Of a DNA stretch of 35,110 nt, positions 29,813 through 33,538 are shown piece after piece. The stretch spans positions 1 to 35,110 of the forward strand of contig CADAGO010000027.1 of assembly GCA_902787555.1 (NCBI GenBank). The letters run 5' to 3'. This DNA comes from an uncultured Bacteroidales bacterium (lineage in GTDB: Bacteria; Bacteroidota; Bacteroidia; Bacteroidales; Bacteroidaceae). The notes below the pieces were generated by a model, which was given only the letters and a program-made list of their open reading frames with translations, was not told where the DNA came from and did no database searches. The first letter of the stretch is position 1, and each line of letters begins with the position of its first letter. Position numbers and translations under genes: made by a program.

Positions 29813-32800
29813 TCATTTTTTTATGATTTCTTCCAAAATACTTACTGCCTGACTAACAGAATTGACCTCTTTCACCCATAATGAACGGCGGCCGTCCTGT
29901 TCGCGTATCTTGGTATTACGAGGATGCCATGATGCATAGGTAATGATGCGGTCGAATGACTCACTCTCGTAGAAACTGCTATTGAAATCAGAGAGAAGAT
30001 AGAGAAACATGTTGCTGCTTTTCAGCACAATCTTCTCCACACCGATGGAGGCAGCAAGCCATTTGAGCGGCATCACCTTCAACAGTTCCTCGCCTTCAGA
30101 TGGAATAGGTCCGAAACGATCGATCAGTCGCTGGCGATATGCGTCAAGCTGTGCCTGCGAAGTCAATGCATCGAGTTCGCGATAAAGGCTGATGCGTTCA
30201 CCACTACTTGGAACGAACGATTCCGGGAAATGTGCCACGATATCTGATTCCACAACTACATTGTCAAACCATTTACTATTTGACCATTTACCATTTACTA
30301 TTTGGTTTTCGTCCTTAGCCTTTTCTCCTTCGTCCTTCGACATCACTTCTGCCCTCAGTTCATCCATCGCCTCAGCCAGCACTTTCTGGTAAGTCTCATA
30401 TCCTAAGTCGGCAATGAAACCGCTCTGTTCAGCTCCTAACAGATTACCGGCTCCACGGATATCGAGGTCCTGCATTGCTATCTGCATTCCGGCTCCTAAC
30501 CCTGAGAAATTCTCCAAGGCTTGCAGACGCCGGCGTGCATCGTCGTTGAGGGCTGCTAATGGCGGAGCCAAAAGGTAGCAGAACGCTTTCTTGTTGCTGC
30601 GCCCTACACGTCCACGCATCTGATGCAGGTCAGAAAGGCCATAATTCTGCGCTCCATTAATGATAATCGTATTAGCATTGGGGATGTCGATACCGTTCTC
30701 AACGATAGTGGTCGAGAGCATCACATCATAGTCATAGTTCATGAAGTCGAACACCACCTCCTCCAGTTCCTGAGGATTCATGCGACCATGTCCGATGCAT
30801 ACACGGGCATCGGGTACTTGCTTCTCTATCATGTCCTTCAGGTCCACCAGGTTGTTGATGCGGTTGTTCACGAAGAACACCTGTCCGTTACGACTCATTT
30901 CAAAGTTGATCGCTTCTGCCACAATCTCGGGCGAGAAAGTATGTATCTCAGTCTGAATGGGATAGCGATTGGGGGGCGGTGTCTGGATAATACTTAAATC
31001 GCGTGCACCCATCAATGAGAATTGCAAAGTACGTGGAATAGGTGTGGCAGTCATCGTGAGGGTATCTACATTGATTTTCATCTGACGCAGTTTCTCTTTC
31101 ACCGATACTCCGAACTTCTGTTCCTCGTCGATGATAAGCAACCCCAGATCCTTGAACTTCACATCCTTGCCAATCAGTTTGTGGGTACCGATGATAATAT
31201 CCACCTTTCCTGCCTTCAAATCCTCCAACACCTCTTTGGTTTGCTTTGCGCTACGTGCCCTACTGATGTATTCCACCCTTACCGGGAAGTCCTTCAGACG
31301 TTCACAGAATGTCTGATAATGCTGATAAGCAAGGATGGTAGTCGGCACGAGGACAGCTACTTGCTTGTTGTCTGCAGCAGCCTTGAAAGCGGCACGAATG
31401 GCTACCTCTGTCTTTCCGAATCCCACATCACCACACACCAGTCGGTCCATCGGCTGCTGACGCTCCATATCTGTCTTCACATCCTGTGTTGCTTTCAGTT
31501 GGTCAGGTGTATCTTCATAGATGAAGCTTGCCTCCAACTCATGCTGCATATAGCTGTCGGGACTATAGGCAAAACCCGCCTCCTGCTGACGCTGCGAGTA
31601 AAGTCGGATAAGATCGCGGGCGATATCCTTCACCTTCGTCTTCACACGGTCTTTCATCCGCTCCCACGCACCTGTACCCAGTCGGTTCAGTCGTGGAGCC
31701 TCACCTTCCCTACCCTTGTATTTCGACACCTTGTTGAGCGCATGAATCGACACATACACGATGTCGTCGTTCTGGTAGATAATCTTGATCATCTCCTGCA
31801 TCTGCCCATTCGTCGGCACCCTCACCAGTCCGCCGAACTTACCCACACCGTGATCGATATGCACCACGTAGTCACCAATCTCAAACTGCTGAATCTCCTT
31901 CAGCGTGAGTGCCACCTTACCTCGACGGGCCTTATCGCTCTTGAGGCTATACTTGTGATATCGGTCGAACAGCTGGTGATCGGTGAAGTAACACTGTTTG
32001 GTTTCATGGTCGATAAAACCTCCATGAATGGCAATAGGCACAGGATTGAATACTACGAGAGTACTACCCTTGCGGTTTGCATCAAAGATTTCCTCCAAAC
32101 GACGTATCTGCTTATCGTTATCGGCAAAGATATTGAGCGTATAGCCATCACCCAGCAACTGTTCAAACGTACTTGTCACCAGTTCGAAATTCTTATGGAA
32201 CAGCGGTTGCATCTCAGTGTTGAACGACACCTTTATATATTTGTTTCCACCCTTGACTTCGTGAACACCTATCAGCACCTTGCGCTTATCAGCTATCTCA
32301 CGTTCAAACTCCTCCCGCGACGACAGGAAACTTGTGTCTAACAGCCCACTCGCGTCCTCCCCCTCAGTTCCCTCCCTTGAGGGGAGGGTTAGGGAGAGGC
32401 TTGCCTGCTTCGAAAAACCTGTCTCACTAATCACCCCTATCTTATCAGCCACAAAGTCAAGGTTCTTGGCCACAATCAGTGTATCGTCGGGCAAGAATGA
32501 AAGGAGTGAGATGTATTGATTCTTTTGTTGTAGCAGGTCGGGCACAATCGAAGCGACATCCATCTTCTCGTCCGACAGCTGACTGACGATATCGAACGTA
32601 CGGATGCTATCTACTTCATCGCCAAAGAAGTCGATACGATAAGGATTCTCATTACTGAACGAATAGACATCGACAATACTTCCTCGGATGGCAAACTGAC
32701 CAGGCTCATACACATAGTCGGTACGTACAAACCCCAAGTCCATCAGACGGTCCTCTAACAGTGATAGATCCATCACATCGCCACGCTTCAATGTCACGGA

Positions 32801-33463
32801 ATTGTCCTCAAGATTCTTACGAGATACTACGCGTTCAGCTAATGCATCAGGGTATGTGACGATAAGAATAGCCCCCCTCCCCGCTCCCCCTGAATGGGGA
32901 GAGTTTTTACTATCGGTCATTATCATCCCTTGGTGACTACTCCCCTCCATGCAGGGAGGGGAAAGGGGGTGGGTCTGGTTAGTTAGCACTTGTGCTAACG
33001 TGTTCGTTCGCAACAGCTCATTGGCATCATCTTTCTGGTTATACTTAATGGCTCGACGATATGAAGAAGGAAAGAATGCCACCTCCCTGTCGCCCAGCAT
33101 CTGGGTGAGGTCGTGATAGAAATAGCCCGCCTCTTCCTCATCGTCCAAGATGAACAAGAAAGAATTGGCAGACCCTCCCCCTTTAACCCCTCCCTGCAAG
33201 GGCGGGGAGTAGTCACTATCAGGGCTAAACATCTCGTGGCATTCACTCCCCTCACTCGCAGGGAGGGGAATGGGGGCGGGTCTTGATATAATAGAGGCAA
33301 AATACAAAGCAGCAGACGAACCATTAAGTCCGTCTACCACTACGTCCGACTTACGTCGTTTGATTGCTTCTGCCAGTCGCTTCGCTTCTGACGACGAAGC
33401 CAACTGCTTCAGTAATTGTTCTCGTTCCAACGCTAAACTGTACCTCTCTCTTATCTCCCCCAA
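29813..33463 (-). CDS. mfd: Transcription-repair coupling factor Mfd, enlarged by in-frame repeat insertions
   Basis: The frame spans 1216 residues, about 100 more than I expect for Bacteroidota Mfd. Recognisable parts: UvrB-homology region (FLFILDDEEEAGYFYHDLTQ; IVTYPDALAERVVSR; VDVYSFSNENPYRIDFFGDE), RNA-polymerase interaction domain (DYVVHIDHGVGKFGGL, about 531-546), helicase motifs (Walker A GDVGFGKTE, about 678-686; DEEQ, about 779-782; TATPIPRTL; GRVGRS) and the C-terminal TRCF domain. It displaces stalled RNA polymerase and recruits UvrA. The excess maps to four low-complexity blocks at about residues 61-98, 164-197, 355-377 and 1043-1068, each encoded by repetitive DNA. No ATG lies in frame before the first block. 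TTG at 33463 is the longest option, but TTG at 33430 (LEREQLLKQ) may be the true start. Its end lies 82 bp before the next operon starts. Confidence 0.9.
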   Translation of the reverse strand: MGEIRERYSLALEREQLLKQLASSSEAKRLAEAIKRRKSDVVVDGLNGSSAALYFASIISRPAPIPLPASEGSECHEMFSPDSDYSPPLQGGVKGGGSANSFLFILDDEEEAGYFYHDLTQMLGDREVAFFPSSYRRAIKYNQKDDANELLRTNTLAQVLTNQTHPLSPPCMEGSSHQGMIMTDSKNSPHSGGAGRGAILIVTYPDALAERVVSRKNLEDNSVTLKRGDVMDLSLLEDRLMDLGFVRTDYVYEPGQFAIRGSIVDVYSFSNENPYRIDFFGDEVDSIRTFDIVSQLSDEKMDVASIVPDLLQQKNQYISLLSFLPDDTLIVAKNLDFVADKIGVISETGFSKQASLSLTLPSREGTEGEDASGLLDTSFLSSREEFEREIADKRKVLIGVHEVKGGNKYIKVSFNTEMQPLFHKNFELVTSTFEQLLGDGYTLNIFADNDKQIRRLEEIFDANRKGSTLVVFNPVPIAIHGGFIDHETKQCYFTDHQLFDRYHKYSLKSDKARRGKVALTLKEIQQFEIGDYVVHIDHGVGKFGGLVRVPTNGQMQEMIKIIYQNDDIVYVSIHALNKVSKYKGREGEAPRLNRLGTGAWERMKDRVKTKVKDIARDLIRLYSQRQQEAGFAYSPDSYMQHELEASFIYEDTPDQLKATQDVKTDMERQQPMDRLVCGDVGFGKTEVAIRAAFKAAADNKQVAVLVPTTILAYQHYQTFCERLKDFPVRVEYISRARSAKQTKEVLEDLKAGKVDIIIGTHKLIGKDVKFKDLGLLIIDEEQKFGVSVKEKLRQMKINVDTLTMTATPIPRTLQFSLMGARDLSIIQTPPPNRYPIQTEIHTFSPEIVAEAINFEMSRNGQVFFVNNRINNLVDLKDMIEKQVPDARVCIGHGRMNPQELEEVVFDFMNYDYDVMLSTTIVENGIDIPNANTIIINGAQNYGLSDLHQMRGRVGRSNKKAFCYLLAPPLAALNDDARRRLQALENFSGLGAGMQIAMQDLDIRGAGNLLGAEQSGFIADLGYETYQKVLAEAMDELRAEVMSKDEGEKAKDENQIVNGKWSNSKWFDNVVVESDIVAHFPESFVPSSGERISLYRELDALTSQAQLDAYRQRLIDRFGPIPSEGEELLKVMPLKWLAASIGVEKIVLKSSNMFLYLLSDFNSSFYESESFDRIITYASWHPRNTKIREQDGRRSLWVKEVNSVSQAVSILEEIIKK
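30270..30304 (-). repeat. Heptamer repeat inside mfd
   Basis: Five 7-bp units in phase (catttac, tatttga, ccattta, ccattta, ctatttg) encode the stretch NQIVNGKWSNSKWF near the C-terminal TRCF domain. The flanking residues are Lys/Glu/Asp-rich. Confidence 0.72.
32362..32400 (-). repeat. GC-rich palindromic insertion inside mfd (third block)
   Basis: The arms cctccccctcagttccctccc and gggagggttagggagagg pair imperfectly around ttgagg. It encodes SLTLPSREGTEGED at about residues 357-370 of Mfd. Confidence 0.68.
32870..32975 (-). repeat. GC-rich palindromic element inside mfd (second block)
   Basis: About 106 bp with long imperfect inverted arms (left cccccctccccgctcccc, right gcagggaggggaaagggggt) around a central ttactatcgg...tggtgacta part. 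It encodes HPLSPPCMEGSSHQGMIMTD then SKNSPHSGGAGRG. The right arm is nearly the same as that of the element at 33171-33281. Confidence 0.75.
33171..33281 (-). repeat. GC-rich palindromic element inside mfd (first block)
   Basis: This 111-bp element, exactly 37 codons, starts gaccctccccc and ends gggggcgggtc, a terminal inverted repeat of 11 bp with one mismatch. Long imperfect arms each hold a smaller palindrome (cccctccctgcaagggcggg and its counterpart). It encodes RPAPIPLPASEGSECHEMF then SPDSDYSPPLQGGVKGG between the FASIIS and SANSFLFILDDEE parts of Mfd. Confidence 0.78.
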
Positions 33464-33538
33464 GGGGAGAGGTTTTTTTTGACTCCCCTCCTTGGGAGGG
33501 GGGGTGGGGGAGGTTTTTATTTCGGACCTCTCTCTTAT
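33442..33538 (-). repeat. Palindromic element with 13-bp flanking direct repeats at the mfd 5' end
   Basis: The 13-mer acctctctcttat occurs at 33442-33454 and again at 33526-33538, exactly 84 bp apart. The 71 bp between them (33455-33525) contains the palindromes ctcccccaaggggag and ctcccctccttgggaggg, related to the elements inside mfd. The layout resembles an insertion with a target-site duplication. Confidence 0.78.

What the first reader, a model, noticed from the sequence alone, without database searches (positions are those of the whole stretch)
29813..33463. Mfd carries at least four in-frame repeat-derived insertions
The mfd frame is about 100 codons longer than expected, and the excess falls in four blocks (about residues 61-98, 164-197, 355-377, 1043-1068). 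Three are encoded by related GC-rich palindromes (33171-33281, 32870-32975, 32362-32400) and one by a 7-bp repeat (30270-30304). The gene stays open and all helicase motifs are intact. This resembles the palindromic-element insertions into coding genes known from Rickettsia, but I know of no description for this group. Either the inserts are tolerated in surface loops or the elements have evolved to keep frame.
Basis: partly seen in the sequence, partly recalled or inferred. Interest (0 to 1): 0.78.

Follow-up and report, generated by a model that had tools for sequence, protein, structure and literature searches.

The report
Mobile palindromes translated inside essential genes
In a bacterium probably from the rumen, short mobile DNA palindromes have landed inside working genes, including the DNA-repair gene mfd, and appear to be read through as extra floppy protein loops; this habit is known from Rickettsia and some other bacteria, but I found no report of it for this group.

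Summary
The mfd frame (29813-33463, minus strand) is open and keeps its Mfd domains. Three of four blocks are GC-rich palindromic elements read in frame: 33170-33283, 32870-32976 and 32357-32401. The fourth is a linker, similar only in sister genome G004. The excess is 62-76 codons against ten congeners and 106-113 against two; the probable start is TTG-33430.

Congeners show insertion: element 1 is in 2 of 14 genomes readable there (own included), element 3 in 3, element 2 whole in one with remnants in two. The core pattern occurs 48 times in the genome against 3 for a reversed control. Elements also sit in frame in recG, a DPP-IV peptidase, an amylase and pcnB, where several relatives lack them. 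More distant Mfd genes carry other palindromes at the same sites. AlphaFold gives low confidence at the inserts.

This is a new member of a known kind (Rickettsia palindromic elements, intragenic REPs). I found no target duplication and no cognate transposase. Unexplained: eight copies shared with G004 differ at 2.0% of positions where the aligned DNA around them averages about 15%.

The parts
29813..33430 (-). mfd (transcription-repair coupling factor), probable CDS from the conserved TTG; the frame stays open to TTG-33463 and beyond
   Evidence: Pfam domains; TTG/GTG-Glu/Asp at the aligned place in 13 of 14 genomes
33170..33283 (-). Element 1: family-B inverted pair, AGACCC-CCCCC arm / stem-loop / spacer / stem-loop / GGGGG-GGGTCT arm; encodes residues 61-98 of P0001 (RPAPIPLPASEG...SPPLQGGVKGGGS)
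   Evidence: present in G000 and G004 only of 14 genomes readable at this site (DNA of ten of them); DNA fold z -5.05; AlphaFold pLDDT below 50 at residues 66-68 and 70-97
32870..32976 (-). Element 2: two stem-loops within AGACCC.../...GGGGGGCT arms; encodes about residues 163-198
   Evidence: whole only in G000; left remnant in G004, right remnant in G013, none in G006; pLDDT below 50 at residues 166-195; DNA fold not beyond shuffles (z -0.92)
32357..32401 (-). Element 3: single 45-bp nested palindrome; encodes SLSLTLPSREGTEGE (residues 355-369)
   Evidence: shared by G000, G004 and G006, absent from the other 11 genomes readable here; pLDDT below 50 at residues 363-373, overlapping its second half
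33442..33515 (-). Element 4: family-A-like copy just upstream of mfd; contains the TTG at 33463
   Evidence: AACCTCCCCC...CTCCCCTTGGGGGAGATAAGAGAGAGGT, same layout as the copies; not matched by the stricter pattern; fold z -1.47
30265..30310 (-).
   Evidence: similar in G004, different in the other relatives aligned, at similar length

Best explanation
The blocks are copies of small, non-autonomous mobile palindromes (REP/REPIN-like, 45-115 bp, several related families) that spread through the genome by an unidentified machinery acting in trans. They usually settle between genes or at gene ends. Copies that land inside a gene survive only if they hit a length-tolerant loop, keep the frame and read through without a stop. 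They are then translated as Pro/Gly/Ser-rich disordered loops and are largely neutral for the protein. Shown: repeat family, insertion relative to relatives, openness of the frame, placement in variable loops of Mfd, predicted disorder. Inferred: mobility by a transposase acting in trans, actual translation, neutrality.
For: Family far above chance. Filled and empty sites in congeners: mfd sites 1-3; recG (filled in G000 and G004, empty in 4); DPP-IV peptidase (filled in G000 and G004, empty in 5); amylase (filled in G000 and G004, absent in 7); pcnB (element in G000 only, of 9). mtaB and a GT2 gene carry different elements in different species. In the 16 of 17 genomes of the genus set with an Mfd match, the matched stretches, scored by reading through stops, have none inside, and 14 genomes have one open frame over the whole protein. 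The recG insert falls between residues 514 and 517 of T. maritima RecG. The three inserts lie in low-confidence loops of the model, at sites that vary in length in 48 relatives while five control stretches vary little. In 393 kb taken as long stretches, 11 of 29 clusters are intergenic, 5 at gene edges and 13 inside ORFs; of those 13 I judged 4 mid-gene.
Against: No transposase was identified: no Y1 transposase in this 82%-complete genome, and none of six Y1 loci from five congeners had elements within the 2.2-3.4 kb read. No target-site duplication was seen, and empty sites suggest replacement of a few codons. Simple neutral decay is contradicted by the low divergence of several shared copies. 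In-gene copies in G000 were found through open frames, so genes broken by an element would have been scored as intergenic.
Confidence: 0.85

Rival explanations
1. The elements are kept at DNA or RNA level by selection (for example as protein-binding sites or structured RNA), inside genes as well as between them; the encoded loops are a side effect.
For: Eight copies shared by G000 and G004 differ at 13 of 658 positions, where equal windows in the same alignments average about 15%. In recG, the peptidase, the amylase, the gamma-carbonic-anhydrase 5' region and C28, no other window is as conserved. At C2:75349 the non-palindromic spacer is identical too, although the 50-bp flanks differ at 11 of 50 and 13 of 47.
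Against: mfd element 1 (10 of 115; 1096 of 3115 windows as low) and an intergenic copy shared with G006 (5 of 65) are not exceptional. Windows as conserved as C2:75349 (225 of 2659) and as mfd element 3 between G000 and G004 (317 of 3325) exist nearby; the C28 background is inflated by poorly aligned DNA. The non-palindromic linker of block 4 is also identical between G000 and G004 (0 of 40). At mtaB, GT2 and C29:1829 the two genomes carry different elements. I lowered this rival from 0.15 after re-reading the linker result.
Confidence: 0.13
2. The shared copies are similar because short DNA tracts carrying them are exchanged between species by homologous recombination.
For: One flank is also little diverged at the peptidase (1 of 50), mfd element 3 (0 of 50) and both at C28 (3 and 2 of 50). 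Right-hand element 2 sequence is shared by G000 and G013, which are much less alike elsewhere in Mfd.
Against: Both 50-bp flanks are at ordinary divergence at recG (6 and 12 of 50) and C2:75349 (11 of 50, 13 of 47).
Confidence: 0.25
3. The blocks are ordinary fast-evolving loops that look repetitive by composition.
For: Block 4, and much of the length of block 3, fit this.
Against: The same element sequences recur between genes and inside unrelated genes, with common ends; 48 versus 3 pattern counts.
Confidence: 0.03
4. The inserts are skipped by the ribosome or removed from the message, like the hairpin byps of yeast mitochondria (recalled, not looked up).
For: GC-rich hairpins inside genes.
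Against: The frame is kept and no stop occurs in the copies compared, which skipping would not require.
Confidence: 0.03

Closest known systems
Rickettsia palindromic elements (RPE; Ogata 2000 and 2002, not read, seen only as cited and summarised in passages of PMC10969869)
   Same: Palindromes of about 100-150 bp, inserted in frame in many unrelated genes, several families per genome.
   Different: Another phylum; the elements here resolve into single or paired short stem-loops, and the same gene sites are reused by different elements in different species. Sequences were not compared.
Intragenic REPs / REP dimers (PMC3733652, section 15 and passages read)
   Same: Short GC-rich stem-loops, single or inverted pairs, mostly intergenic, some in frame in replication and repair genes; different REPs at about the same recB site in two Xanthomonas species.
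   Different: No GTAG or CGTC tag is evident in family A; in family B a GTAG/GTGG lies on the other side of the stem from the convention as I recall it. No RAYT association found.
MITEs (PMC10969869, passages read)
   Same: Non-autonomous, inverted ends, able to make in-frame fusions.
   Different: No target-site duplication seen; no parent transposon identified (none was sought).
Subclass 1.2 Y1 (TnpA) proteins (PMC6006769, passages read)
   Same: The Y1 protein of G004 has YIENQETHH, close to the table's YIKNQKEHH, and the subclass occurs in Bacteroidetes.
   Different: That paper's table lists no REPs for the subclass; none flank it here. Membership was judged by motif only.

Membership tests
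Rickettsia palindromic elements | palindromic repeat of about 100-150 bp in several copies | tested here: met
   element 1 is 114 bp with related copies elsewhere
Rickettsia palindromic elements | in-frame insertion in unrelated protein-coding genes | tested here: met
   mfd, recG, DPP-IV peptidase, amylase, pcnB
Rickettsia palindromic elements | sequence similarity to a described RPE family | not tested
   no RPE sequences were compared
REP / REPIN | short GC-rich stem-loops in high copy, mostly intergenic, often as inverted pairs | tested here: met
   in 393 kb, 4 of 29 clusters judged mid-gene, the rest intergenic, at gene ends or starts, or spurious (1)
REP / REPIN | GTAG or CGTC tag at the stem foot | tested here: inconclusive
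   GTAG or GTGG follows the stem in 9 of 15 family-B units, on the opposite side from the convention I recall; family A was not scored, and no tag is evident in its copies
REP / REPIN | cognate RAYT gene flanked by the repeats | tested here: inconclusive
   Y1_Tnp absent from this incomplete genome; found in 6 of 17 genomes of the genus set; six loci from five of these examined, none flanked by elements; the weak matches of G001 were not examined
MITE | terminal inverted repeats | tested here: met
   AACC.../...GGTT and AGACCC.../...GGGTCT ends
MITE | target-site duplication | tested here: not met
   exact adjacent repeats of 2-9 bp sought; 9 rows (8 copies, one listed on both strands): 7 rows with none, the others 2 and 3 bp
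MITE | parent insertion sequence with the same ends | not tested
   no search for an IS with these ends was made

The most novel reading that the evidence does not exclude
The palindromes are not dead insertions but are maintained at nucleotide level inside essential genes: the cell conserves the DNA or RNA element, spacer included, better than the surrounding gene, so the same stretch of recG or of the peptidase gene serves both as protein code and as a conserved non-coding element. (Probability lowered from 0.13 after re-reading that the block-4 linker is also identical between G000 and G004.)
Probability: 0.11. Interest if true: 0.85.

Novelty: new member of a known kind. Interest (0 to 1): 0.6.

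Why it matters
How protein-coding palindromes move, and whether their peptides are tolerated or used, is to my knowledge still open. Here they occur in a bacterial family with well over a hundred held genomes. Pattern counts swing from 0-3 to over 100 between species of one genus, empty sites are easy to find, and different elements reuse the same protein loops. That allows direct tests of the insertion mechanism, of which protein sites accept 15-45 extra residues, and of whether the elements are selected. It also warns annotators that some start codons and apparent protein segments in these genomes come from mobile repeats.

Tried and rejected
Old domains: rejected, most congeners lack the blocks. 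Block 4 as an element: rejected. RAYT as the driver: tested with PF01797 in the own genome and in the 17-genome genus set; the Y1 gene shared by G004 and G007 lies between other genes with no elements around it, so the link is not supported. Six of 7 mid-gene copies have length 2 modulo 3 against 3 of 9 intergenic ones; this is too few to conclude, and I assigned the classes. My first extraction of Mfd relatives used the wrong strand for some loci and was redone. In the scan of 80 Mfd loci, 27 of 39 clusters lay in mfd, but at least 5 are the conserved motif YKGKEG or YRGKEG and not elements. The Mfd model used 48 of 56 eligible relatives; 24 of 80 loci had been skipped for a short match. Of the model's 8 low-confidence segments, 4 fall in or across inserts, 3 are short loops elsewhere and 1 is the end of the fragment. 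The divergence count left out sites where G000 and G004 carry different elements (mtaB 44 of 114, GT2 18 of 55, C29:1829 40 of 97 differing), ispD (0 of 40), the element-2 remnant (0 of 29) and the block-4 linker (0 of 40), all. Element-bearing LeuS and RuvA rest on short palindromes (16 and 26 bp) without compared relatives and are weak. Literature on this group: the listings showed no paper on in-frame palindromes in rumen Bacteroidaceae or Prevotella; several listings were capped at 10-15 of 22-137 papers, and subscription journals are mostly not held. Only passages or one section of four papers were read.
Full report
What was checked. The window is a whole contig (C27) of a 2.69-Mb, 55-contig genome, estimated 82% complete. 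The 80 named loci kept by a GTDB search are largely MAGs of Bacteroidaceae, Prevotellaceae and Bacteroidales, many from the rumen or gut; the closest, 94% identical, is RGIG6563 from a sheep reticulum (L036). The mfd frame is open from TTG-33463 to 29813 and carries the Mfd domains. The start shared with relatives is the TTG at 33430: 13 of 14 genomes have TTG or GTG followed by Glu/Asp at the aligned place.

The elements. Element 1 (33170-33283) is an inverted pair of stem-loops inside long inverted arms ending AGACCC / GGGTCT. Element 2 (32870-32976) has a similar layout with less symmetrical arms. Element 3 (32357-32401) is one nested palindrome. A fourth copy, of a related family with AACC / GGTT ends, lies just upstream (33442-33515) and contains the TTG that an automatic caller would choose. 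Single-strand DNA folding is far beyond shuffles for element 1 (z -5.05) and not for the others (-0.92, -1.84, -1.47).

Insertion shown by relatives. The genus set holds 17 genomes, own included; 16 have an Mfd match. Two of these (G003, G014) are cut by contig ends, leaving 14 genomes readable at sites 1-3 (DNA of ten). Element 1 is present in G000 and G004 and absent from the other 12, including G006 (93% identical over most of the protein). Element 2 is whole in G000. G004 keeps only its left end, G013 only its right end, and G006 has nothing. Element 3 is shared by G000, G004 and G006. No matched stretch has a stop inside (which reads through stops), and each of the 14 has one open frame over the protein. 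Block 4 is a linker of 54-60 residues in ten genomes, similar in G000 and G004 only. The protein is 30 residues longer than that of G004, 62-76 longer than ten congeners, and 106 and 113 longer than two.

Not only mfd. The pattern CCCTCCN{2,14}GGAGGG occurs 48 times per strand in this genome against 3 for the reversed control. I read 704 kb of the genome, window included, partly chosen around hits, and found 83 clusters by a looser rule that also catches some chance ones. In the 393 kb taken as long stretches there are 29 clusters: 11 intergenic, 5 at gene edges, 13 inside ORFs. By reading the proteins I judge 4 of these 13 to be mid-gene (one of them, RuvA, weak), 8 near or before the true start, and 1 spurious. 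Since most of a bacterial genome is coding (general knowledge), most insertions that hit genes must have been lost. With relatives as comparison: recG is filled in G000 and G004 and empty in G006, G007, G012 and G013; a DPP-IV peptidase is filled in the same two and empty in G003, G006, G012, G013 and G015; an amylase-family gene is filled in the same two and lacks the element in seven others; pcnB has the element in G000 alone of nine, while G016 and G013 have other short repeats at that spot. mtaB and its neighbouring glycosyltransferase carry different elements in different species; in G013 and in G004 both genes carry nearly the same insert, which suggests copying or conversion between sites. 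Pfam supports the gene kinds.

Beyond the genus. Counts of the same pattern in 121 genomes of the family are patchy. 85 have at least one match, many of them no more than the reversed control. 18 genomes, in seven of 30 genera, have 30 to 154 against controls of 0 to 9, while other species of the same genera have almost none. In 20 stretches around hits from three genomes of two other genera, 15 of 35 clusters lay inside frames of 200 aa or more, though a few of these frames may not be genes. Named by Pfam among them are UvrA, asparagine synthase, a methionyl-tRNA formyltransferase-like protein and a CobQ-like protein (one of eight proteins had no match). In 30 further loci from ten genomes, 18 of 48 clusters were listed inside such frames, some of them the same site in overlapping loci. 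The UvrA insert falls between residues 602 and 607 of a solved UvrA. All these frames were found through openness, so broken genes are not counted. Among more distant Mfd genes, whose genus I did not determine, L041 carries at site 2 a palindrome with AAGCCCCCC ends, L051 an inverted array of a 7-bp repeat, and L057 and L090 short palindromes; at site 3, L041, L048, L054, L056 and L090 carry palindromes. Different elements have thus reached the same loops several times.

Why there. In 48 relatives, sites 1-3 range over 12-50, 17-54 and 27-48 residues, while five control stretches vary little (one is constant, the widest reach 59 against 47 and 72 against 61). An AlphaFold model of residues 12-640 has pLDDT below 50 at residues 66-68 and 70-97, 166-195 and 363-373, in or across the three inserts, at three short loops elsewhere and at the fragment's end. 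The recG insert lies between the DEQHRFG and TATPIPRT stretches, at residues 514/517 of T. maritima RecG. So the surviving inserts examined sit in loops.

Mechanism. No target duplication is seen: 9 rows for 8 copies, the longest match 3 bp. In the peptidase and recG the element seems to replace three or four codons of the empty site. This resembles REP-type insertion more than a classic MITE, but no RAYT-like gene was tied to the elements. The Y1 protein of G004 has a motif close to that of subclass 1.2 in PMC6006769, for which the paper's table lists no REPs (passages read). The mobilising enzyme is unknown.

A result that does not fit simple decay. Eight copies shared by G000 and G004 differ at 13 of 658 positions; equal-sized windows in the same alignments average about 101 differences for the same total. 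In five of the eight no other window is as conserved, though for C28 the background is inflated by poorly aligned DNA. Against this, mfd element 1 is ordinary (10 differences; 1096 of 3115 windows as low), C2:75349 and mfd element 3 have equally conserved windows nearby (225 of 2659; 317 of 3325), and the block-4 linker, not a palindrome, is also identical (0 of 40). Of the two comparisons with G006, mfd element 3 differs at 1 of 43 positions (50 of 3490 windows as low) and the intergenic copy is ordinary (5 of 65; 261 of 1962). Short recombination tracts can explain copies with a conserved flank, but not recG or C2:75349, where both flanks are diverged. I leave this open.

Known work. RPEs are summarised in PMC10969869 (passages read). 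Intragenic REPs in many species, with a tendency towards replication and repair genes and one case of reuse of about the same recB site, are described in PMC3733652 (section 15 and passages read). The present case is a new member of that kind in Bacteroidota, documented by empty sites.

Noticed in passing
window 33442-33463; also G000 C4:154257-154919 and C20:132334-134259: Elements just upstream of genes supply in-frame start codons or join upstream frames, so automatic start calls (for example mfd TTG-33463) are probably wrong; in C20 a DUF559-like frame (name by eye) runs through an element into leuC (name by eye).
   Followed up: partly
window 33521-33537: A partial right end of a second family-A element (ATAAGAGAGAGGT) lies directly upstream of the full copy, hinting at tandem or decayed copies.
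   Followed up: no
window 30265-30310; L012 Mfd site 3; L051 Mfd site 2; L230 pcnB site: A second class of insert made of short repeats (7-bp units such as AAATGGT, CGGTTAG or CATTCCT, and GTTCAAGGT-like units) occupies tolerant loops in some species; in L051 it forms an inverted array.
   Followed up: partly
L161 (G013) and L168 (G004), mtaB and neighbouring GT2 gene: Within one genome both neighbouring genes carry nearly the same insert, while species differ, as if copies were homogenised within the genome.
   Followed up: no
L210 (G004) and L282 (G091): What looks like the same gene (no Pfam match for L282) carries different palindromes at the same site (after KxNKHYRPWEE) in two genera.
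   Followed up: partly
L212, L213, L214, L215: Y1 transposase-like frames of 162-185 residues, one strong match per genome; in G004 and G007 in the same neighbourhood, apparently a domesticated gene; that of G013 is a different type.
   Followed up: partly
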